DNA of 64,000 nt from Branchiostoma floridae (lineage: Eukaryota > Chordata > Leptocardii > Amphioxiformes > Branchiostomatidae), in contig NC_049981.1 of NCBI RefSeq assembly GCF_000003815.2, forward strand, positions 2,929,905 to 2,993,904. Direction: 5' to 3'. Below the pieces are notes generated by a model that was not told the origin of the DNA, did no database searches, and saw only the letters and a list, made by a program, of their open reading frames with translations. Positions 3,285 through 40,550 of this stretch are shown here, piece after piece; within the stretch, counting starts at the first letter, position 1, and every line of letters begins with the position of its first letter. Made by a program: the position numbers and the translations under genes.

Positions 3285-5302
3285 GTTGTACCAGTATGGC
3301 TGGAATTTTCAACCTCGTGGGCCGTCTGCATACATTGAGAACAGCTCTCTTCAGTTGGAGTCTCTAAAGGTTAGTTATGTTGCTTTCTGGTAGGGAAACA
3401 TATGATTTCATCAGGTTGGTAGGTCATAGGATAGTAGAGTTTTTATTTTCTCTTTTACACAATCAGTTAATTTTACTTAATCTTGTATTGATCGAATGTC
3501 TATAACTTTTGAAGGATAAAGAAAAACACTACGGTCCATGGCCTGGGAATAACAGCTGGCGAGAGCTTCATTTCAAGTCGTCGGACATAATCAGGTGAGA
3601 AGATTCAAGTATACGTATTATAACAGTCATTTTCAGGATGGATACGAATTATAATTAGGGGGAATCAATTGCAGCCTCGTTTTGGTGCTTGGTCCCGGGA
3701 AATTCAAAATGGCTGCCGTATTTGGAAGGAGGCTAATTCATTACATTTATACATTTGCTTAAAAAACAATTGATAGGAACAAATAGTTGTCTTGTTGTGT
3801 GGTATTTATATTTTACAAGAGCAAGCCGTACTCGGGGTCTAGTACGTATATGAGGCCGCTATGTTGGATATAATTTCATTTCAGTGAAATTCATTGTTCA
3901 ATGATATTTTTTTGCAGAAAAACAGTCAGTGAAGTTTTTACACCAGAACGAGATATCGTACTCTTCTCAAATTTCGACAAAGACACGGAAAGTTGCCATC
4001 TCCATGGCGAACCTTATCAGGAGTGTCGGGGCATCACGCCAATCAAACGGTACAGGACATGCGCAGTAGTGGGCGGAAGCGGCATCATCAAAGGCACCGG
4101 CTGTGGACCGGAAATCGACCGCCATGATTTCGTCATCCGATTCAATATGGCGCCCATCACTGGATATGCAAATGACGTAGGGGTCAAAGTTGACATGGTA
4201 GTGGTTGGTACCTTCAAGCTGCACATGATGAAAAATACCCTGGAAGCCGATCCAGACAGCCTCCACACTTTAGCAAAATGGAAGCCAGAGAAGTACATGT
4301 CCAGCATAGAGGAAATCCTATCCAGACTCAAATCATACAACAATTCGATCTTCTTTTATCCCAAGCCAATTTTTGACCCTTTGTCGGGACGAGGAAGGGG
4401 GCCGGATATGCATCTGAACGCTTTGAATAACATGTGGAGAGACATTGGCTTAAACATCACCATTACGTACAACCTCTTTAACCTCAGGGATCTGACAGTC
4501 CAGTGAGTATTTGTTGGTGTTTTTCTTCATTACTACCTGTTCATGATGATGTGAGGATATCTCACTGGGCCCTGTGATTGTTGTTGACTGTTTGCGAAAG
4601 ACATTCGCTTACAGTTTTGCAAGTTTTTTTTCCATTCAGTGACAACATTGCAATTTCCAATAAAGTTGTCTTGAATTTTATTTGCGACCGAAAATGAGGT
4701 TGTGACATTCTGGGAGCAGCCATTTTGTCTCTAGAGGTCACATGTTTTACCCATTTGCCGCAATTTGGCAAAAAATAACAAACACGCAATACTTCGTCCC
4801 AAAATGGTGCTACCCAGTGAGATACCCGCTTAACGGATAGGATGAGATAATCTTAGTGACTTTTCCGTCTTGAATTAGTGTTTGAAGAAAATTCAAACAG
4901 TTCTTTAGTCTTCTTCAATTGTTTCCATGGTTTGTATTTTGTCAAGCAAAGCAAGAATTTAAAACTTCAGTGACGAATTAACAGTCTTTTCGCAAAACTT
5001 TTTTTTTCAGAATGCTTGAACAGCTCTACCCAAAGTTCCGAGCGCCCTCTGTCGGAATTATTACGTACCTGCAAGCTCTCACGTTCTGCGACCACGTGAA
5101 CCTATACGGGTTCTACCCACTGCCAAGGGACCCACTGAACAGAGTGGTCCCTTTCCACTACCACGACGATCTTTTGCCTGGTAACGGAAAAATACAGAAG
5201 CCACATTTCTACCAGTTAGAATATGATTTAATGAGAGAACTGGACGATAAAGGGGTACTTAATTACTATATAGATAAATGCGTTCAAGAACCAACATCGT
5301 GA
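3285..5302 (+). CDS. Alpha-2,8-sialyltransferase (GT29, ST8Sia-like), 5'-partial
   Basis: Golgi type II enzyme expected to move sialic acid from CMP-sialic acid onto a sialylated glycan. Four exons join in phase: 3285-3369, 3515-3594, 3918-4502 and 5011-5302 (TGA at 5300). Sialylmotif L lies in the third exon, from RTCAVVGGSG to the VDMVVVG segment. Sialylmotif S is in the fourth, around PSVGIITYLQALTFCDHVNLYG. It is followed by motif III (FHYHDD) and motif VS (PHFYQLEYDL, H-x4-E). The two cysteines that form the conserved disulphide (RTCAVV and TFCDHV) are present. About 348 residues are covered, so only the N-terminal cytoplasmic tail and signal anchor are missing. I found no convincing first exon between 506 and 3284; it may lie there or left of the window. 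The ST8Sia subfamily cannot be assigned by eye. A possible polyadenylation signal (AATAAA) is near 5922. Confidence 0.9.
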
Positions 5303-7521: not shown

Positions 7522-10190
7522 GAGTAGAGTAGAGTAGAGTAGAGTTCTTCAGGCTCAGGTAGGAACTGCAGTTCCAGTTTAGGCCGCTCTTTCCTTTCTA
7601 AGTCACTGACATCCCAGGTAATTGCGGGTCGTCCAGGGCTCTAAAGTTGTAATACACGCTGTGTTTCTTCATGTGCTTGTCTAGTCTTTCCTTAAAGCAG
7701 TTTACACTTGGGGATGTCACCACCAGCTCTGGTAGATTGTTCCACCATGAGACAACTCTGATGCAGAAGAAGTGTGATCTTCTGTTACTTTTCGACGCTT
7801 GTCTCTTAATCCGGAGGCAGTGACCCCTTGTTCTTGTGCTCGTATTTAACTCAAACGGACATGAAGTGTCGTATATCCCATGTAGGAACTTGTAGGTGTT
7901 TATCAGGTCCCCCCTAAGTCTCCTATAGACCAGCGTAGGTAAGTTTAGAGCCTTCAGTCTCTCTTCATAGGGTAGACTTCTAAGGCCGGGAACTCTCTTC
8001 GTTGCTCTCTTCTGTACCCTTTCTAGATCCAGGGCCAGCTTCCATGTGTAGGGGGACCATGCAGGAGCCCCATACTCCAGCTGGGGACGAATGAGCGACT
8101 TATATAGGAGTAGGAACACCTCCTTATCTACATAGGCAAAAGTCCTCCATATGAGACCTGCGATCTGATTTGCCTTATTACAAATGTTGGATATATGTTT
8201 GCTGAAACTCAGCTCCTTGTCAACAGTAATACCCAAGTCCTTTTCCTGTTGTGTAAATTCCAGTAGGGTACGAGTCTCATTATCCAACATTGAGTATGTG
8301 TAGTCAGGGTGTCCTTTTCCCAGTCTTATTACTGTACATTTCATGGGATGAAAGCTCAACTGCCATTTTATTGCCCAGTCCTGAAGTACTTGAAGGTCCC
8401 TCTGCAATTTGTTGCATTCTTCCCTTTGTACTACTGATCTATATAACTTAGTGTCGTCTGCAAAGAGCTTCAGCTTACTCTGCACAATTTCCGGCATGTC
8501 GTTGACAAAAATAGTGAAGAGCACCGGACCCAGGACGCTCCCCTGGGGAACTCCGCTTGTTACTTCGGCCCATTCTGATTTTTCCCCATTGACACAGACT
8601 CTCTGTCTCCGTCCTGACAAAAAAGATTCAATCCAATTTAAAAGGTTTCCCGTGATCCCGTAGCTTTGTATTTTGGCTAATAGTCTCTTAATTGGTACTG
8701 AATCAAAAGCCTTGCGGAAGTCGAGATAGACCGCGTCAACGGGTGTTCCTCGGTCAAGCCACTCAGTCCACTCGTCTAAGCACTCCAACATCTGAGTGGT
8801 AGTAGATCTTCCTGGCAAGAAGCCATGTTGGTGTGGTGTAAAGAGATTGTTTACCTTCATATGCTTGACAATGGCGTCTCTAATCAACCCTTCCAGAATT
8901 TTTCCTACTACTGAGGTCAGGCTAACCGGGCGGTAGTTACCGGGTGATTTCTTACAACCCTTTTTGTAAATTGGCGTGACATTAGCGGTTTTCCAGGCAT
9001 CGGGGAGTTTGCCTTCTTGTACAGTCTTGACGTAGAGAATCTGCAGTGGAACCGCCAGGGTGTCCGCCAATTCCTTTAACACTCTAGGGTGTACGTTGTC
9101 GGGCCCCATTGCCTTGTTTGGGTTAAGGTTTTTCAATCTTTGTTGGACCTCCTCGAAACAAATGTCAATGTCAGTTATCTCTTCATTGTAGTGTCTTTCA
9201 GTTGGTATTGGGATGTGTTGTAGGTCTTCCTTAGTAAAGGTGCTTACAAAAAACTTGTTGAGTAACTCAGCTTTTTCTGTATCAGATTGTGCCACTGAGG
9301 ATCCATCTTCCAAGTCTGGAATGCCTTGGCGCACTTTGGATTTTGAGTTTACATATTTCCAGAAGATTTTGGCATTGCCTTTGATGTTTCTCGCTTTCTC
9401 CTTTTCATATGTTTTGACCGCTTTTCTTGTGGCCCATCTGACCTGGTTTCTCGCCCTCGTGTATTTAATGTAGTCATCCTTTGTCCTAGATTCACAGTAT
9501 TTCTTCCAAAGTTTCTGCTTTTTGTTCATTTTTTTATTAACTTCCCTGTCTCTCCAAGATAGTTTCCTCTTCTTTTTTCTTGAGGAGACTTTGGGTACAT
9601 TCCTGTTCGCACTTTCAGCTACTTTGCCCGAGAAGACCTCCCAGCAATCTTCAACATTCAACTTGCCTAGAATTTCCTGCCAGTCCAGTGACAGTTCCTC
9701 CCTCATTTTATCATAGTCCCCCTTGTTGTACTGGCATGTCTCATTTTTGTATTGTGTTCTGTTTGCATAACAGTTGATCTTAAAATTTAATACCACATGG
9801 TCGCTCTTGCCGATGGGGGGTCTCATGATTAGGTCACTTATCATGTCACCCTCATTAGTCAATAATAAGTCCAGTACATTACTTTCTTGTCTAAGTTGAT
9901 GTCTCGTTGCTTCACAAATGTGCTGGTACAAGTATGCGTCGTTCGTAGCTTCAAGGAACTTAAATGCCTCGTTTTTGTTAGACTGGCCGGTGTTTCCTGC
10001 CCCTTCACTCCATTGTATTTCTGGGTGGTTAAAGTCCCCAACAATGAGAATATGCGAGTATCCCAGGGTATTTATATTGCGTATCAGTGTATTGATTTTT
10101 TCGTTGTTCTCAGGTGTAGAGTTTGGACTCCTGTACACTGCAATAAGTAGGAGTTTGTCATTGTTCCTCAACTTAATTTCAATTTAGAAT
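7522..10190 (-). mobile_element. 5'-truncated non-LTR retrotransposon (CR1/Jockey group)
   Basis: The 3' end on the minus strand is a short (CTCTA)n microsatellite at about 7516-7546, as in CR1/L2-type LINEs that end in short tandem repeats rather than poly(A). The 5' end is cut within the endonuclease domain at about 10190. The element lies in the spacer between the sialyltransferase and dae4. Confidence 0.85.
7598..10171 (-). CDS. LINE ORF2 fragment: endonuclease C-terminal part plus reverse transcriptase
   Basis: 857 residues with no stop or frameshift. The N-terminal ~140 residues are the end of an exonuclease-endonuclease-phosphatase domain, with YRSP near residue 14, GDFN near 47 and SDH (GKSDHVVLNF) near 125-130. 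The first part of that domain is missing, including its metal-binding glutamate. A basic linker rich in K and R follows. The reverse transcriptase has NYRPVSLTSV, AFDSVP, GVPQGSVLGP and the catalytic FADD (near residue 570). The C-terminal domain is CR1/Jockey-like (RPQLEYGAPAW, RRLRGDLI). The open frame suggests recent insertion, but the copy cannot be autonomous without a full endonuclease. The ATG used is simply the first in the remaining frame. Confidence 0.93.
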   Translation of the reverse strand: MRNNDKLLLIAVYRSPNSTPENNEKINTLIRNINTLGYSHILIVGDFNHPEIQWSEGAGNTGQSNKNEAFKFLEATNDAYLYQHICEATRHQLRQESNVLDLLLTNEGDMISDLIMRPPIGKSDHVVLNFKINCYANRTQYKNETCQYNKGDYDKMREELSLDWQEILGKLNVEDCWEVFSGKVAESANRNVPKVSSRKKKRKLSWRDREVNKKMNKKQKLWKKYCESRTKDDYIKYTRARNQVRWATRKAVKTYEKEKARNIKGNAKIFWKYVNSKSKVRQGIPDLEDGSSVAQSDTEKAELLNKFFVSTFTKEDLQHIPIPTERHYNEEITDIDICFEEVQQRLKNLNPNKAMGPDNVHPRVLKELADTLAVPLQILYVKTVQEGKLPDAWKTANVTPIYKKGCKKSPGNYRPVSLTSVVGKILEGLIRDAIVKHMKVNNLFTPHQHGFLPGRSTTTQMLECLDEWTEWLDRGTPVDAVYLDFRKAFDSVPIKRLLAKIQSYGITGNLLNWIESFLSGRRQRVCVNGEKSEWAEVTSGVPQGSVLGPVLFTIFVNDMPEIVQSKLKLFADDTKLYRSVVQREECNKLQRDLQVLQDWAIKWQLSFHPMKCTVIRLGKGHPDYTYSMLDNETRTLLEFTQQEKDLGITVDKELSFSKHISNICNKANQIAGLIWRTFAYVDKEVFLLLYKSLIRPQLEYGAPAWSPYTWKLALDLERVQKRATKRVPGLRSLPYEERLKALNLPTLVYRRLRGDLINTYKFLHGIYDTSCPFELNTSTRTRGHCLRIKRQASKSNRRSHFFCIRVVSWWNNLPELVVTSPSVNCFKERLDKHMKKHSVYYNFRALDDPQLPGMSVT

Positions 10191-11880: not shown

Positions 11881-14555
11881 CTAGAACTCGAAGAGTCTGA
11901 TGTTGCTGCAGGCGCTGAAGTAGCAGTTCCCGGCACAGTCGGAGCCGTCCCACAGGTCCACGTGGCCGGTCGCTGCCTGGAAGCCGCAGTTCTGGAACAC
12001 GATGATGCCCTGTTTCCCCTGTTAGCATGGAGAACACACAGTTGGTGACAAGAAAAACAAAGAAACACCATCCTTTTCAGCACTCAGTTCCAGTGTGCTT
12101 TTAACAGCAGTTTTTTTGTTTTTTTTAGCAGTTGAATACCTTTCAGATCAAGGTCTAAAAGAATCTGAATGTTGGCATTATTGCAGATGATGCGCGGCGC
12201 TCACAAATAATTCTAATACTAAATAATCATAATGATACCGTAACGTGTAAAGAAAATAGTGAGCCTAGCGCACATAGTCTTCCACTGGTCGTAACAGAGA
12301 GGACAGACGTATTTACAGGTACAGTATTTACAGGTTCGTTATACCATGGGATTTTCCCTACTTCTTTTCGACAAGCACAACTGTACGGTGGACCACGGCT
12401 TAACGTCCTGTCCTGAGGACTGTAACCCTTTCCGGTAGCGTGCATGTCAGGTGAGCGACACAGCCGGAATCGAGCTCACGGCGTCTACTTCCAGAGGCAG
12501 GGCCGCTAACCACTGGACTACGCACAATGGATTCTGGGCAGAAATTAAAATGTTACTGGAAGTTGGTTATGAACTTATGGTTCAAGAGTGGACTTTTTTC
12601 TGGCGGACTCTTACCCGGAAGCTGCTCTCACTACTTCCGGTGACGTCAGCAGGACCGTACTGGTTCTCCAGGTAACAGCGCATGGTGCCCACACGGATGA
12701 TGTAAGGCCGGCGCTCTCTGTCTCTCACGCCGGACCAGTTACAGGACCCCGGTACAATCTGCCTTCCTGTAGGTGAAATATCACAATTAGAGGCATGCGC
12801 GTACATGGGTCGTTAAAATAAGTGTAAGAAGCAAGGATTGGGCTATTTGATAAAAATAATAGACTTTAACCAAGTTTAGGGTGTCCTAGGGTCTAAGTGC
12901 AGTTTGGAGGCGTTCATTTTTTTTGTCTAGAGAGATCAAGGGTAATCAGAGTTCCGGTGATGAAGCAACGCTTTTCACCGTTAAAATATCACTAGATGGC
13001 ATGGACACGTTAGACTATGCTGCAAATGTGAACTCATATGACTTTTCACAATCCTGTTGTCCATGTGGCCATGGCACTAATAATAATCACAACTAGCCGT
13101 CGCAGACTTATGGAGCGAAGACCATTTTTTTGGGGGGGGGGGGGATAAGGTTGGCCCCCTCCCCTAATAATAAACGCCCCTTGCAGAAGTCTACGAAGGA
13201 GGCTAATGATTGATGAGTGTTCACAGAGATAGAGAAGTCGCCTTACCTGAGTGAGTGAGCGCCCGACTGACCCTCATGGCGCAGGTGTTCTTGTCCGTCA
13301 CGTCCTTCAGCCAGGCGGGCAGACCCTCATCGTCCACCAGCTCATCCCAACTCCTTCCCCCGAAGAAGACGCCTGGGTAAGCAGGGTAGTTGCTCTCCAG
13401 CTGGGAGAAGCTCGGCCAACCTTTAATAACAGAAAAAGGTAAAAATGTTAGTTGATGTCGTGGTGTCGTCCGTGGCGTACTGTAAATGCATTTAAGTTCG
13501 CGGGGATTTAATTTCGCGGTAGAGGGAACTCTCAACTCTCAATAGTGTACTGGACAAAGCCCTCAATTAGAGCATCACGTCCAAAAGGGAAAAAGGACTT
13601 TTCGCGGTGGTTTTAATTTCGCGGTAACACCATAGACTGCAGTCTAATACCATAATAGAAAAATGTTCGCGGTGGTTTTAAGTTCGCGGTAAAGAGTCAC
13701 CGCAAAGACCGCGAACATCAATCCACCGCGAACATTTCTGCATTTACAGTAACTTGTACAGTGTTGGGCTCGAGTGTTGAACCTAGAGGTCCCTGGTTCG
13801 ATACTCGCAGTCCCCTCGACATTGTGCCTTTGGGAAAGGCATTTTACATGACCTTCCTCACTTAACCTACATGTATGTGTAAGAATGGCCCCGGGAACCT
13901 GACTTCGGTCGGGGAGGTATACTACTAATACTACTCTTACCCTCTGTCTGTACTTTGTATCTGTTAAAATAAATTACTAACTTGTGCCACGTGGTCACAA
14001 AAATGTCACTCAAGTTCACCTCTTTTTTTTTTTAGAATAGGAGACTGTTACGAATATGAACAAAGCAATGATCTTTTAAAGTAAATCGCTAAATCGTCGT
14101 GTTCCAAGGAATACGTATAGGCTGACTTTATGAATGTATGGCTGTATACTGTATACTAAGTGACAGAAATCGTCATTGCTCACACGTTTCGTACTTCACT
14201 GGTGCATATTCTAATGCGACCTCTATGCATAAACTAGGGGCACGACAGGGTAGCCAGCCCGGCCTTTTCCGTAAACCCGTAGCTACACTAAAGTCTACCA
14301 CATTTAGTATCACTTCAAATCTACAATGAAACTCAAGGCTACCGTACATTTAATTCACATGTACAAGTTAACTCAACGCTGCTACACAACGTAGTTTCCC
14401 AATTTCCCACTTCTTACAGAAATCTCACCTGATCTGGGTCTCGAGCCCGAGCTTGAACCCGAACTTGAACTTGAGCTTGAGAAAAGCCACGCGCTGCTTC
14501 CGTGCCAAACGCAGGCAAAGAGCACGGCGACGAACCACACTGTCGTCTTCAGCAT
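11881..14555 (-). CDS. Secreted Tae4-like peptidoglycan amidase (domesticated amidase effector)
   Basis: Four exons join in phase: 14555-14429, 13420-13247, 12766-12615 and 12018-11881 (TAG), giving 196 residues. Residues 1-22 are a signal peptide (MLKTTVWFVAVLFACVWHGS), followed by a serine-rich stretch to about residue 42. The rest matches the Tae4 amidase family of type VI secretion: W-P-SFSQLESNYP at 44-55, the catalytic-cysteine block NTCAMRVSRAL with Cys89, RPYIIRVGTM in exon 3, and the catalytic-histidine block ATGHVDLWDG with His170. Asp178 or Asp172 may be the third catalytic residue. Extra cysteines (114, 162, 179, 183, 188) suggest disulphides suited to an extracellular protein. 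The family cleaves the gamma-D-glutamyl-mDAP bond of bacterial peptidoglycan. Introns, signal peptide and TATA box argue for a eukaryotic gene of bacterial origin. A variant poly(A) signal (ATTAAA) lies about 20 bp past the stop. Confidence 0.88.
12425..12530 (-). mobile_element. tRNA-derived SINE fragment
   Basis: On the minus strand an A-box-like TAGTCCAGTGGTTAGCGGCC is followed by a B-box-like GAGCTCGATTCC. It sits in intron 3 of the dae4-like gene. The rest does not pair as a full cloverleaf, so it is a SINE head rather than a tRNA gene. Confidence 0.6.
13478..13751. mobile_element. CGCGAA-rich MITE, copy A
   Basis: Ends TACTGTAAATGCA / TGCATTTACAGTA. The interior repeats TTCGCGG and CCGCGAA in both orientations and can fold back on itself. 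It lies in the intron between coding exons 1 and 2 of the dae4-like gene. Three more copies lie at 27440, 56656 and 62962. Confidence 0.85.
13757..13995 (+). mobile_element. tRNA-derived SINE
   Basis: The head carries GGGCTCGAGTGTTGAACC and a B box GGTTCGATACTC. The body, with CTTTGGGAAAGGCA, CCTTCCTCACTTAACCT and GGTCGGGGAGGTAT, is echoed by sequences near 52500-52580 and 59560-59610. It directly follows the MITE at 13478-13751. Confidence 0.65.
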
Positions 14556-14622
14556 GTTGTCCTTTGAAGCAAGGTAAAGTCGACTTTAAGATGTTCACCG
14601 ATGTTCTTGGTTGGTGGTGGAT

Positions 14623-15500
14623 TCTGAAACCAGACGTGAAAAATTAGCCGACAATATGTCTTCAAAATTATCCTACGTAAACAACCAACCAACTTACGAA
14701 CGGGCGCCAATACCTAATCTACGTCTTCCAAGCGCTATCAAAGATAACGGCTAGGGGTGGGTACCAAAACTTTAGAAAAAGACGGACCTGATAAAATTAA
14801 TCAGTAGACCGGAACTTGGACAGATTAGACGCTTGGGAGCTTTAATACAACTGGGAACTTACTTACTGGGAACAAACTCCCACAGTCAAAATGGTCTCAA
14901 GACTATCACTTTAAGTCCGCTACGAAATTTGTATTCCCCATAGAGACGACGGCACGTTTTTTTGAGGCCGCTTATGTGTGACCACCCGGACTCGAGGTCA
15001 GGACGCAAGTTTTCATAGACAATCAGGTTCAGGTCCGGACTGGACCTGATCCTCTGGGCCTGGACCCGACCTGAATTTTGTGTACCGGTAGCTACCCCTA
15101 TAGTCACGACCATATACAGAACAAGAGATATCAAACCCAGAAATGCCACTCAAGCACCATAATACGGCGTAAGCTGACCTCGAATTTGAAGGTTTAACTT
15201 ATAAAAACCTACCCACGTACCAAATATCAAAACAATCCATCCATGGCCAGGCATTTTCTAGGTACCTTGCGCACAGATATTATCATCTCAGTAACAAGCT
15301 CATTGTAGTCACTACTGTAACAATACCTTCGTTTCACGGAGGTAACTAAACGAACATGAAAAGAGCGCTGTAAACATGACAGGCGGCAGAGGAAAGCAAG
15401 GATTTACACACCTGTAGAATTGCACGGAAGTTGTCAGAGCTGCGTCACTCTGCGTCCTCTGCACGAATGAAGACTTGTGGAGAACTTCTGGCCTTTTATA
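14623..15500 (-). promoter_or_regulatory. dae4 promoter, 5' UTR exon and 5' UTR intron (predicted)
   Basis: On the minus strand a TATA box (TATAAAAG) occupies 15500-15493, so transcription should start near 15465-15470. A short untranslated exon would end at 15412 (CTACAG, then GTGTGT). An acceptor (TCTGGTTTCAG) at 14624 joins it to the exon carrying the ATG at 14555. A defined TATA promoter fits an inducible or tissue-specific gene. This is inferred from motifs only; no transcript was seen. Confidence 0.6.
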
Positions 15501-17854
15501 CGTTTCCTCTCTGTGGGCTTGGCACAAAGCCATGCATATCTTATCGGAGCTCCTGGTCAGCTAACAGCAGGGATTTACATGTGGTTTGCATTTTAGGACA
15601 CGCTTCCTGTTAGGTTTCTAGTACCTTGGTCAAAAACTTATCGTCGGATTTTGCTTGATATTGCAAACAGTGGATTTTGACCCAGAACCCAGATATGCAG
15701 AAAACGCTGACGCTTAAAATTTGCGAATTCAAGTTAAAAGGGTCCCTTTCAAAAGACTCTATCCTTGCTGTAGGTTTTCTTGTCTTCCTTGGCCCACCCC
15801 TAATTTCCCAGCAGTCCCTTCGCCGGGTCAATGACCTCAAAGGTAGAGACGACGGTGAACATTTCTGGCTGACAAAGGAGCACCGGGACTTCCTTCTAAG
15901 AAACTTAACGGTGCTCAAATTTGCACCTTTGGGCTTGTCTTGCTTCCGCTTGGTTTCTTGGACGTAAGCTTAAGCCCATATGATAATTCTGTACAAATAA
16001 CAAATAGAACCATTGTTTCTAAAATCCCTCATGTCGGCATTTAATGATTAAATCAACAATTATGCAAATATTCATTACTAGCTTACATAAACAAGTACAA
16101 AAATGCCCTCGCACTCTCACAGAAATCTGTTAATCATGTTTCTCTCGTCAAATGGCTTTTGGCGCTTAGGATCTCGGACATTTTATACTGTTAGTTTTAG
16201 CAGTGAGTGTCGCGCAGTAGGCGGCATAAAATATCCTATTAAAAGGATTGAAATAAGGGTTAGTGCTTTTCTGAAGCCTTTTTGTATTGTATTCATGTCT
16301 TCCTATGGACAGCAGGTCTCAATGTGGTATCTGCCCAGTAAGTTACCAAACACAATAACGGAACCCTTATAGTAACGGATTCACTGCTTCATAAGGTGCT
16401 TTCCTCTCCTCACAGGGGGTTTCGCCCCTTAGCAGGACCGGTACTCACGCCACACCCCGCCCCCGAGGTTCAAGGTGGCGCAAGCTGGTATTCTCTAGTC
16501 GACGTGATGTTTCCCTTCTTTTTCTGAGCTCCATAATCTGCGCAACGACTGCCCCGCTTCATCCGCTAGCCTTCTGGTTGCTCAATCCTTTTGTCTTCTT
16601 CCCTCCGCTCCCGATGCCCCCTCCCCTCCCCCCAACTTGATTGACACTGAGCTCTTCCAACCGCTGTCAAGAATTGTATTGTTTGAGGACAAATCTAAAT
16701 CTAATTGTCTTATCCTCACCTCTGCTATCTATAAGAATTGATAAACAGCTACAAAGACAGTCAGGAAAGATTATTACTCAGCAATACCCATACAAGTTTT
16801 GACGGACGTGTAGGATGCTACGCAATGTTTATATTATACAGAGTGCAGTCTCTCGGAAGTTATCCATTTTGCGTCCCTATGAATTTCATGTGCGCGCATT
16901 CTAACACACACACACACAAACGCATTTCATACCATAGTATACACCTTTTTCTACTATGAAATACACGATAGAACAGAAAATGTCCGTCTCTAAACCTGTC
17001 CATGGTGCTGATATAACGTTCCCACGATGATTCTTGCGACGGAATATATTTCGCCATTGAGTCCGGCAAAGCCTTATTCTTCCTTATCCAATTCATATGT
17101 ATGTCTATCTCTTGTGTCTGCTCCAAGCCGTTAATCCGCCCTCTCAGAGGATGACCCTTGACACTCTCTATTATCCCGAAATTGTTCGAAGATAATCCGA
17201 CAAATAATATCTGACGTACGTCCTTTAGTGCAAGTTGACCAAGACGACAACTACGGCTATGCCGTCCTGTTCTGTACGGGAACAGTATTTTCCTTAGTAA
17301 TACATATTTGCATACCTTACCTTTGGAATTGCACCGCCAAAGCTATCTATGTAAATGTCTAAATGCCTTACGTTTGGGATCGCACCTGTCAGTTGCGACA
17401 CCTAACTGCAGTGCTGCATATCACAGGACCAGTCACATATATGTAAAAAATTAATATTAAACAGGTATGTAATTGCCTTACCTGTCTATAATTTTCGATT
17501 TTTTATAAAGACTAATAGACTGACCGTTATCTTTGCTATAGCAATATTTATTTATGAAACAAGGCAAGGTCTAAAAATTATGTAGCACATCAAATAGTAT
17601 CTGTACATTGATTACCTTCGATAGCGATTACAAGTAGTACAAAGTTCATTGTGTTGACTCACAAATTATTCTAACTTTTTTAAAACCTTAACAAAACTAG
17701 AATAGACTCACAAGCCATAAGAATAGAATAAAAAAAAGTAGCTTAGCACTATGAAATACACGCACATGCCTGTCCCTCATGATATAATGGTTAACACACG
17801 TCTGTCCCTCATGATCCAATGATACAAGCTTTTCTATCCCTCGTGATCTAATAC
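15501..17854. other. Intergenic DNA without a supported gene
   Basis: Several open frames of 60-100 codons occur, none with exon borders or motifs. A short CA run lies at about 16902-16918. Nothing else is recognised. Confidence 0.5.
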
Positions 17855-40100: not shown

Positions 40101-40550
40101 ATGCGGCATACCGGTACGCGGCACAGATCATAACACTTCGGCACTGAACTTAATCGGACGTTAGTTGTTTTGTTTTTTCTTGCGACAGTTAACCATTAAC
40201 TTTAATTTTCGCGATTTTACAATTAAATTTAATTTTCGCGGTTTTACAATTAAATTTAATGTTCGCGGTTTTGCAATTAAATTTAATTTTCGCGGTTTTC
40301 GCGCCCCAAGGTGGACGGCCTCCCAGCTGAGGTCTGGCGGAAACACTGATAACCACTGTTAACTAACAGTTTAAGAGTGTATTGGAGTTCTCACCCAGTC
40401 CGTAGTGAAAGGTGCCCCGTTAGACATGAGCATCCTGACTTCTTCATCATGGCCCTTCCTGGCAGCATCCAGCAGTCTCTTCCCCAGGTCCACCAGGGTC
40501 AGAGCTGCTGCCTGCCCCGGGGTGGGGTTCACGTTGGCTGCCAGGGACAT
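28126..40550 (-). CDS. GA-binding protein beta subunit (GABP beta)
   Basis: Nuclear partner of the ETS factor GABP alpha in the alpha2-beta2 regulator of housekeeping and mitochondrial genes. Eleven exons join in phase: 40550-40395, 38413-38322, 37870-37765, 37388-37290, 36622-36557, 33237-33066, 31779-31681, 31126-30968, 30275-30075, 29239-29109 and 28296-28126 (TAA), giving 483 residues. Ankyrin repeats fill residues ~20-170 ([42 protein letters not shown]) and bind GABP alpha. A Ser/Thr/Gln-rich middle contains [14 protein letters not shown] (243-256), a GABP beta signature in the transactivation region. A basic PSKRMR stretch (408-413) is a likely nuclear signal. The last exon is a charged coiled coil ([20 protein letters not shown]) for dimerisation. 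The N-terminus carries about 16 extra residues before [15 protein letters not shown]. An acceptor-like CCACAG lies just before the ATG, so the promoter is further upstream. Introns 1 and 5 hold large transposons. Confidence 0.95.
28435..28565. repeat. Foldback repeat copy (GGTTTTGGAAAC family)
   Basis: Contains AAATCATATCCAGTTGCTTG, AGTAACTGCTTTTTGGTGCA and ACCTGGAT, matching the copy at 47766-47950. Lies in the last intron of GABPB. Confidence 0.65.
29821..30038. mobile_element. MITE with GGCTCTAGCCAGC / GCTGGCTAGAGCC ends
   Basis: Inverted ends around ~190 bp that include TCAACCTTGACGGACAAAAA. A longer relative lies at 32686-33036. Located in the GABPB intron between exons 9 and 10. Confidence 0.7.
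32152..32261. repeat. Partial GGGTGCACC / TTTCGAGCCCTG repeat
   Basis: One half of the family seen complete at 49783-50105. It has inverted GGGTGCACC motifs and the diagnostic end ATTTCGAGCCCTG. Confidence 0.6.
32686..33036. mobile_element. hAT-like MITE in GABPB intron 5
   Basis: Ends CAGGGCTCTAG / CTAGAGCCCTG. The flanking octamers TAAGCAGT and CATGCAGT match at 6 of 8 positions, as a decayed 8-bp duplication would. Its interior (about 32779-32920) is an inverted relative of 39245-39390 in another element. Confidence 0.65.
33312..35916. mobile_element. 2.6-kb TIR element with 5-bp target duplication (AGTAG)
   Basis: Ends CAGAGGCGGCGGCACCG / CGGTGCCGCCGCCACTG. AGTAG flanks both sides (33307-33311 and 35917-35921). 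The interior has no long coding frame. It has four diverged copies of a block with ACCCTCTGAAACG and TTTCCTGCATTTTGAGG (about 33455, 35320, 35520 and 35700). It also has several copies of a GGCATACGGTACA block (about 33875-34215), a tandem array at 34410-35200, and C-rich GGGGGCGACGCCCCC palindromes near the right end. The superfamily is not assigned. Confidence 0.75.
34410..35200. repeat. Diverged tandem repeat array
   Basis: About six copies of a ~110-150 bp unit with TTTTTGGACTGG, TTTTACATGGG, TGTACTGGAAGAGTCCATTC and TTGCATGGGG. It lies inside the 2.6-kb element. Confidence 0.7.
38694..38764. mobile_element. 71-bp hairpin MITE in GABPB intron 1-2 region
   Basis: ACAACACGGTGTATTACGTA plus TCACCC at the left is inverted at the right as GGGTGATACAAAATACACCG plus TGTTGT. 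The loop is ~20 bp. Lies in the intron between GABPB coding exons 1 and 2. Confidence 0.7.
39089..40348. mobile_element. Non-autonomous hAT-type transposon, 1260 bp, in GABPB intron 1
   Basis: The 16-bp ends are perfect inverted repeats (CAGTGTTTCCGCCAGA), followed by imperfect inner pairing (GGCGTCCACC). An exact 8-bp duplication, ATAACCAC, flanks it at 39081-39088 and 40349-40356. The 8-bp duplication and CAGTG start are typical of hAT elements. No transposase is seen. The right part has four near-identical ~30-bp units around TTTAATTTTCGCGGTTTT (40195-40300). The element ends 47 bp from the donor of GABPB coding exon 1. Confidence 0.9.
39780..39930. promoter_or_regulatory. Promoter-like motif cluster inside the hAT element
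   Basis: Within 150 bp lie a CCAAT box (AGCCAATCACAG, about 39822), a CRE-like GTGACGTCGC (about 39845), the palindrome TCTCGCGAGA (39868-39877), an E-box CACGTG (about 39883) and GGCCGCCATTA (about 39905). Such clusters mark CpG-type housekeeping promoters. Activity is inferred from motifs only. Confidence 0.45.

What the first reader, a model, noticed from the sequence alone, without database searches (positions are those of the whole stretch)
11881..14555. A complete, intron-bearing, secreted Tae4-type amidase gene in a chordate
Four phase-consistent exons encode a signal peptide, a Ser-rich linker and a Tae4-like domain with both catalytic blocks (Cys89 in NTCAMR, His170 in TGHVDLW). Established: Tae4 enzymes are type VI secretion effectors that cut peptidoglycan peptides, and domesticated (dae) homologues, including Tae4-like ones in lancelets as I recall, have been reported in eukaryotes. 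Inference: this copy is an active antibacterial effector. The spliced gene rules out simple bacterial contamination.
Basis: partly seen in the sequence, partly recalled or inferred. Interest (0 to 1): 0.9.

Follow-up and report, generated by a model that had tools for sequence, protein, structure and literature searches.

The report
Bacterial cell-wall-cutting gene in lancelet
An animal genome, probably a lancelet's, carries a small family of spliced genes for predicted secreted proteins related to a bacterial cell-wall-cutting enzyme; this copy keeps the predicted cutting site, so it is probably an antibacterial enzyme of a kind already known from other animals.

Summary
Confirmed. It is a chromosomal gene, not contamination. 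The host genome has Tae4 exons at seven loci on four contigs; five loci have exons 2, 3 and 4 with introns at the same places. New details: (i) the third catalytic residue is predicted to be Asp172 (His+2), the Serratia Ssp1/Agrobacterium triad type, with Gly at His+11, although the family sits in the tree beside a clade of the His+11 type; (ii) cysteines 109, 131, 162 and 188, invariant in the four aligned family proteins, occur together in 0 of 40 bacterial rows, which suggests added disulfides; (iii) short upstream blocks and a TATA motif recur before the C15 paralog, while introns 1 and 2 do not align. Best reading: a secreted peptidoglycan DL-endopeptidase, a 'dae4'. Transfer of such genes to eukaryotes is published (Chou 2015, seen only as cited elsewhere); that lancelets were included is recalled. 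Expression and activity are untested. Interest is moderate: a known kind with useful new anatomy.

The parts
14429..14555 (-). coding exon 1: start codon, signal peptide (about residues 1-22) and Ser/Gly-rich linker; ends in phase 1
   Evidence: the signal-peptide part is conserved in C15A (72% over residues 1-29, E 8.5e-5; 55 of 62 bases)
13247..13420 (-). coding exon 2: N-terminal part of the Tae4 fold and catalytic Cys89 (codon 13283-13281); ends in phase 1
12615..12766 (-). coding exon 3; family-specific Cys109 (12743-12741) and Cys131 (12677-12675); ends in phase 0
11881..12018 (-). coding exon 4 and stop: His170 (11964-11962), Asp172 (11958-11956), Cys179/Cys183 loop, family-specific Cys162 (11988-11986) and Cys188 (11910-11908)
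13421..14428 (-). intron 1 (GT-AG, 1008 bases)
12767..13246 (-). intron 2 (GT-AG, 480 bases)
12019..12614 (-). intron 3 (GT-AG, 596 bases)
14556..14623 (-). predicted 5' untranslated part of the exon that holds the start codon (acceptor TTTCAG)
   Evidence: consensus only
15412..15470 (-). predicted non-coding first exon (start inferred about 30 bases after the TATA motif; donor CAG|GTGTGT)
   Evidence: inference
15492..15500 (-). TATA motif TATAAAAGG; C15A has TATAAAAAGG in the corresponding order, found as a motif and not inside a significant alignment
15577..15594 (-). upstream block AAAATGCAAACCACATGT, identical in C15A (E 3e-4)
15643..15675 (-). upstream block, 28 of 33 bases shared with C15A (E 2.5e-5)
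15868..15962 (-). upstream block, 80 of 98 aligned columns shared with C15A (E 1.6e-20); contains TTCTTAGAA, which resembles a STAT site (motif recalled); copies also on C7 and C10
11860..11865 (-). ATTAAA 15 bases after the stop codon, a possible but weak poly(A) signal

Best explanation
The gene is a domesticated Tae4 (a 'dae4'). A bacterial type VI amidase gene entered an ancestor of this animal, gained a signal-peptide exon and three coding introns, and was then copied to four contigs. [quoted passage not shown] No Tai4 inhibitor was found, and extra cysteines probably form disulfides suited to the extracellular space. Shown here: gene structure, family, triad positions, paralogs, tree, purifying selection against one paralog. 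Inferred: secretion, activity, disulfides, antibacterial role, direction of transfer.
For: Pfam and PDB matches over the catalytic domain. Cys89, His170 and Asp172 are invariant in the 4 aligned family proteins; exon 4 of the other three loci also reads GHVDLW. Published structures describe two Tae4 triads, Asp at His+11 (Enterobacter, Salmonella) and at His+2 (Serratia Ssp1, Agrobacterium) (passages of PMC6277958, and PMC3852654); in 40 bacterial rows 28 have D at +2 without D at +11, 10 have T at +2 with D at +11, 1 has both, 1 neither. Signal peptide conserved in C15A. Intron phases 1,1,0 in the window gene and C15A; introns 2 and 3 alike in C8a, b and c. dN/dS 0.29 between window and C15A over 171 codons. 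Upstream blocks align to C15A while introns 1 and 2 show no match at 1e-3. Family clade 100/100, inside a larger Tae4 group with support 95/91. No Tai4 match in the host, whereas 6 of 9 Tae4-bearing bacterial genomes gave one.
Against: No transcript, protein or assay. His+11 is Gly; if Asp172 did not serve as third residue the enzyme would be weak, since the Asp137-to-Ala variant of Salmonella Tae4 lost its effect on growth (passage of PMC3695027). Two of seven loci show no exon 3, one of them with assembly gaps, so part of the family is decaying or incomplete. C8a-C8c has a higher dN/dS, 0.575 with few changes. The upstream region has copies on C7 and C10, where the Tae4 searches found no exon, so its conservation is not a clean argument for regulation. 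The Tai4 search had a silent built-in control and would miss a gene split by introns. NCBIfam gave no family.
Confidence: 0.75

Rival explanations
1. A digestive enzyme: the same secreted endopeptidase is used by a filter feeder to break up ingested bacteria as food, not for defence.
For: Signal peptide and conserved triad; amphioxus gut cells are reported to digest particles by phagocytosis (start of the abstract of PMC6015868 in the listing). Nothing in the sequence separates digestion from defence.
Against: No expression data either way. The same abstract start says that gut cells express many immune genes. Tick Dae2, another captured tae gene, is described as antibacterial in gut and saliva (passages of PMC11347951).
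Confidence: 0.3
2. A domesticated gene that no longer cuts peptidoglycan: a binding or sensing protein, or a gene on its way to loss.
For: Two of seven loci lack a detectable exon 3; Gly at the His+11 position that is Asp in one bacterial type.
Against: Cys, His and the His+2 Asp are kept in the 4 aligned proteins; dN/dS 0.29 to C15A; D at +2 without D at +11 is the commonest bacterial state, 28 of 40 rows.
Confidence: 0.12
3. Bacterial contamination or a recent stray insertion.
For: Domain otherwise bacterial.
Against: Three coding introns, at positions shared with paralogs; lies within a 34-Mb contig with a reverse-transcriptase frame and a sialyltransferase match nearby; only 30-32% identical over the aligned region to the three named bacterial rows (38-39% over residues 86-185).
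Confidence: 0.01

Closest known systems
Domesticated amidase effectors (dae), e.g. tick Dae2
   Same: a T6SS effector gene captured by an animal; passages describe Dae2 as antibacterial, present in gut and saliva, and induced through JAK/STAT
   Different: Dae2 is of the Tae2 kind (inferred from its name); this is Tae4. A lancelet dae4 in Chou et al. 2015 is recalled; the paper is not held
Bacterial Tae4 of Enterobacter (4hfk) and Salmonella (4hff, 4j30)
   Same: best-scoring solved relatives; Cys, His and the CxxxC loop kept; rows of the same His+11 type (Pantoea, Erwinia and others) lie in the neighbouring clade
   Different: third catalytic Asp at His+2 instead of His+11; signal peptide, introns, four additional cysteines, no Tai4 found
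Serratia Ssp1 and Agrobacterium Tae4
   Same: Cys-His-Asp triad with Asp at His+2 (passages)
   Different: more distant by sequence: 6ijf, which I recall as the Agrobacterium protein (the call lists only 'Tae4'), matches at 4.3e-8; Ssp1 was not compared
Tae4 of Giardia muris
   Same: laterally acquired eukaryotic Tae4 (passages of PMC7641422)
   Different: a protist, described there as a recent acquisition; not compared by sequence here

Membership tests
Tae4 (PF14113) | profile match above the curated cut-off | tested here: met
   74.9 bits against 27
Tae4 (PF14113) | catalytic Cys and His | tested here: met
   C89 and H170 align with the catalytic Cys and His
Tae4 (PF14113) | third catalytic Asp at one of the two known positions | tested here: met
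   D172 at His+2; G181 at His+11 (types)
Tae4 (PF14113) | loop cysteines (C135/C139 of Salmonella Tae4) | tested here: met
   C179 and C183 align; that they bond is not tested
Tae4 (PF14113) | cleaves gamma-D-Glu-mDAP | not testable with these tools
   needs an assay
Tae4 effector-immunity pair of a T6SS | cognate Tai4 gene nearby | tested here: not met
   0 PF16695 matches in the host, built-in control silent; 6 of 9 Tae4-bearing bacterial genomes have one; an exon-split Tai4 is not excluded
dae (domesticated amidase effector) | tae-derived gene in a eukaryotic nuclear genome, with introns | tested here: met
dae (domesticated amidase effector) | signal for secretion | tested here: inconclusive
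   hydrophobic N-terminus, conserved in C15A; no signal-peptide program was available
dae (domesticated amidase effector) | antibacterial activity in the host | not testable with these tools
   no assay or expression data

The most novel reading that the evidence does not exclude
This animal has turned one captured type VI amidase into its own secreted gene family. Its lineage kept the His+2 Asp and branched off before a neighbouring bacterial Tae4 clade moved that Asp to His+11. It then added two family-wide disulfides (perhaps C109-C131 and C162-C188), and the genes are driven by an inducible immune promoter whose conserved upstream block holds a STAT-like site, in parallel with the JAK/STAT-induced Dae2 of ticks.
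Probability: 0.15. Interest if true: 0.65.

Novelty: new member of a known kind. Interest (0 to 1): 0.4.

Why it matters
If active, it is a chordate that makes a weapon bacteria use on each other, from an ordinary animal gene. The Asp position, the extra cysteines and the missing immunity gene make the change from injected toxin to secreted enzyme testable with single-residue changes and RNA-seq.

Tried and rejected
Contamination: rejected by shared introns. Viral, phage or plasmid route: one viral-contig scan gave 42 pattern matches and no relative; phages gave one Tae4-like hit (E 4e-10) in a 1.4-kb record; plasmids gave 2 records; PHROGs, PADLOC and NCBIfam gave 0 families. Donor lineage: only Pseudomonadota were sampled (matches in 13 of 398, 13 of 369 and 8 of 295 genomes), so the donor is not named; Bacteroides ihuae rang as a control, but I had no handle for it and did not try. 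Host identity: the GFP family gave 0 matches with a silent control, slightly against a lancelet; ApeC gave 34 matches, in favour. The upstream block as a gene-specific regulatory element: weakened, since it has four copies. Exon 1 was not found for C8a, C8b, C8c or C15B; for C18 only a Ser/Gly-rich candidate was seen.

Rows dropped before counts: of 51 loci L036-L086, two repeat L036 (L042, L081), one had no match (L065), and eight were short or broken pieces (L057, L069, L070, L073, L075, L076, L078, L083); 40 were counted. Five divergent rows (L049, L050, L051, L053, L085) were also left out of the tree. Of the 22 matches, 21 belong to the seven loci; one on C19 at E 0.906, against the Ser-rich part, was set aside.

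Full report
What is there. On the minus strand of the window, four exons at 14555-14429, 13420-13247, 12766-12615 and 12018-11881 join in frame across GT-AG introns into a 196-residue protein that ends in a stop codon. It matches Pfam Tae4 at 74.9 bits (E 7.5e-21; cut-off 27) over residues 86-181, and by sequence the solved proteins 4hfk (6.2e-18), 4jur, 4hff, 4j30 and 6ijf (4.3e-8). The alignment with 6ijf starts at residue 46, so the Tae4 part begins soon after the linker. In a shuffle control, a paralog's protein hits all four exons in order (40.8 to 90.9 bits), while 500 shuffles gave 8 hits, the best 25.8 bits.

Host. The window lies in contig C3 of a 513,431,437-base genome of 431 contigs. 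C1-C3, C7, C8, C10, C15, C18 and C19 are 17-35 Mb and C20-C22 under 4 kb; contigs are not ordered by size (C146 reaches at least 18.7 kb), so I did not establish how many large ones there are. Branchiostoma floridae has 19 chromosomes (passages). ApeC, not detected in vertebrates or arthropods according to a passage of PMC12373286, gives 34 exon-level matches. A GFP-family search gave 0 matches, against expectation for a lancelet, with a control that was silent too. 'Lancelet' is thus an inference, and 'lancelet proteins' below means the proteins of this genome.

Family in the genome. Searches with PF14113 and with the protein found exons at seven loci: one on C3 (this one), two on C15, three on C8, one on C18 (both count only the best candidates). 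C15A is 78% identical and C8a and C8c 55% and 57%; C15A has a matching signal peptide (72% over residues 1-29, E 8.5e-5). Intron phases are 1, 1, 0 in the window gene and C15A, and introns 2 and 3 sit at the same places in C8a, b and c. C8a and C8b are a tandem duplication of about 4.1 kb at 99% identity. C15B has exons 2 and 4 but no exon 3, in a stretch without N; C18 also shows no exon 3, but two runs of 100 N lie between its exons. So five of seven loci have exons 2-4. Between the window gene and C15A dN/dS is 0.29 over 171 codons; comparisons with C8 are near saturation at synonymous sites; C8a against C8c gives 0.575 over 150 codons.

Active site. Two kinds of Tae4 triad are described: Asp at His+11 in Enterobacter and Salmonella, Asp at His+2 in Serratia Ssp1 and Agrobacterium (passages). 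The four aligned lancelet proteins have Asp at +2 (D172) and Gly at +11. In 40 bacterial rows, out of 51 fetched loci (exclusions under Tried and rejected), 28 have D at +2 without D at +11, 10 have T at +2 with D at +11, 1 has both and 1 has neither; Cys is kept in 40 and His in 38. The two positions thus largely replace each other, and the lancelet proteins belong to the His+2 type. The loop cysteines C179 and C183 are kept. In Salmonella Tae4 single changes of the matching pair abolished the growth effect according to the text, although a figure legend in the same output reads the other way.

Extra cysteines. C109, C131, C162 and C188 are invariant in the four lancelet proteins. Bacterial rows with Cys at these columns number 0, 0, 3 (L046, L047, L061) and 0 of 40, and L086 has one within three columns of 188. 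With C89, C179 and C183 the mature protein has seven cysteines: one catalytic and possibly three disulfides. The pairs C109-C131 and C162-C188 are a guess.

Tree. With 35 bacterial and 4 lancelet rows, the lancelet proteins form one clade (100/100); with L059, L082 and the ten-row His+11 clade they form a group of 16 rows with support 95/91. L059 and L082 have Asp at +2. The drawn root is a midpoint, so order is an inference: the simplest account is that the lancelet proteins kept the His+2 Asp and that the shift to His+11 happened in the neighbouring bacterial clade. Sampling covers Pseudomonadota only: matches in 13 of 398, 13 of 369 and 8 of 295 genomes, with three named Erwiniaceae loci from the one scan of genome contigs. 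The donor cannot be named.

Upstream region. A TATA motif at 15500-15492, a predicted non-coding exon ending at 15412 and an acceptor before 14623 suggest a promoter about 0.9 kb upstream of the start codon. C15A has TATAAAAAGG and three aligned blocks in the same order (E 1.6e-20, 2.5e-5, 3e-4; a fourth match at 0.004 lies nearer the gene), while introns 1 and 2 show no match at 1e-3 and intron 3 only its last 32 bases. Against a simple reading: the largest block has four copies in the genome, two of them on C7 and C10, and the C7 copy extends over the promoter part (89.5% over 162 aligned columns), while neither Tae4 search found an exon on C7 or C10; the C10 piece is mostly N (1488 of 2201). 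The block contains TTCTTAGAA, which looks like a STAT site (motif recalled). A review passage says that tick dae2 expression is induced through JAK/STAT.

No immunity gene found. The host has no match to Tai4 (PF16695), with a silent built-in control. On nine Tae4-bearing bacterial genomes the same search found Tai4 in six, each time with one copy within 170 bases of a Tae4 match. A Tai4 broken by introns would be missed.

Mechanism. The most likely function is a secreted peptidoglycan DL-endopeptidase that acts outside the cell on bacteria. Family, triad positions and constraint against one paralog are shown; secretion, activity, substrate and role are inferred. Defence and digestion cannot be told apart from sequence.

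Literature. PMC4832377 (passages) states that T6SS effector genes were transferred to eukaryotes and augment innate immunity, citing Chou et al. 2015. That paper is not held, and my memory that it lists a lancelet dae4 is unverified. A search for any two of dae4, Branchiostoma and Tae4 found 0 papers; dae4 alone found 11, of which the 10 listed titles are unrelated. Giardia muris Tae4 (passages) is a second eukaryotic case. The further listings showed no title on lancelet Tae4. I therefore rate this a new member of a known kind; the seven-locus family, triad type, extra cysteines and upstream conservation are details that I did not meet in those searches, which cover only the open library and mostly as listings.

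Noticed in passing
window 7601-10183 (-): 861-aa open frame with endonuclease and reverse transcriptase matches (PF14529, PF00078), a retrotransposon without LTR evidence, next to the Tae4 gene on its 3' side.
   Followed up: no
window 3874-4503 (+): Match to sialyltransferases (PF00777, E 2.5e-22), probably an exon.
   Followed up: no
G000:C7:19589799-19590514 (L094) and C10:13982867-13983148 (L093): Copies of the window gene's upstream region; the C7 copy includes the promoter part (89.5% over 162 columns), but the genome searches found no Tae4 exon on C7 or C10. Possible promoter duplication or remnant.
   Followed up: partly
G000:C8, exon 4 of C8a and C8b (L009, L010): C8a and C8b carry an acidic C-terminal tail that C8c lacks; their 7 amino-acid differences all lie in that tail, with 0 synonymous changes over 183 codons.
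   Followed up: no
L008 3114-4402 (G000:C15): Paralog C15B has open exons 2 and 4 with the catalytic residues but no exon 3.
   Followed up: partly
window 40195-40299 and 13510-13625: Short sequences with TTTCGCGGT occur in a tandem array and inside intron 1.
   Followed up: no
G521 (L057, L067, L070, L072, L074, L076-L078) and G695 (L060, L068, L071, L073, L075): Two bacterial genomes carry 8 and 5 Tae4 matches, some of them broken or split.
   Followed up: no
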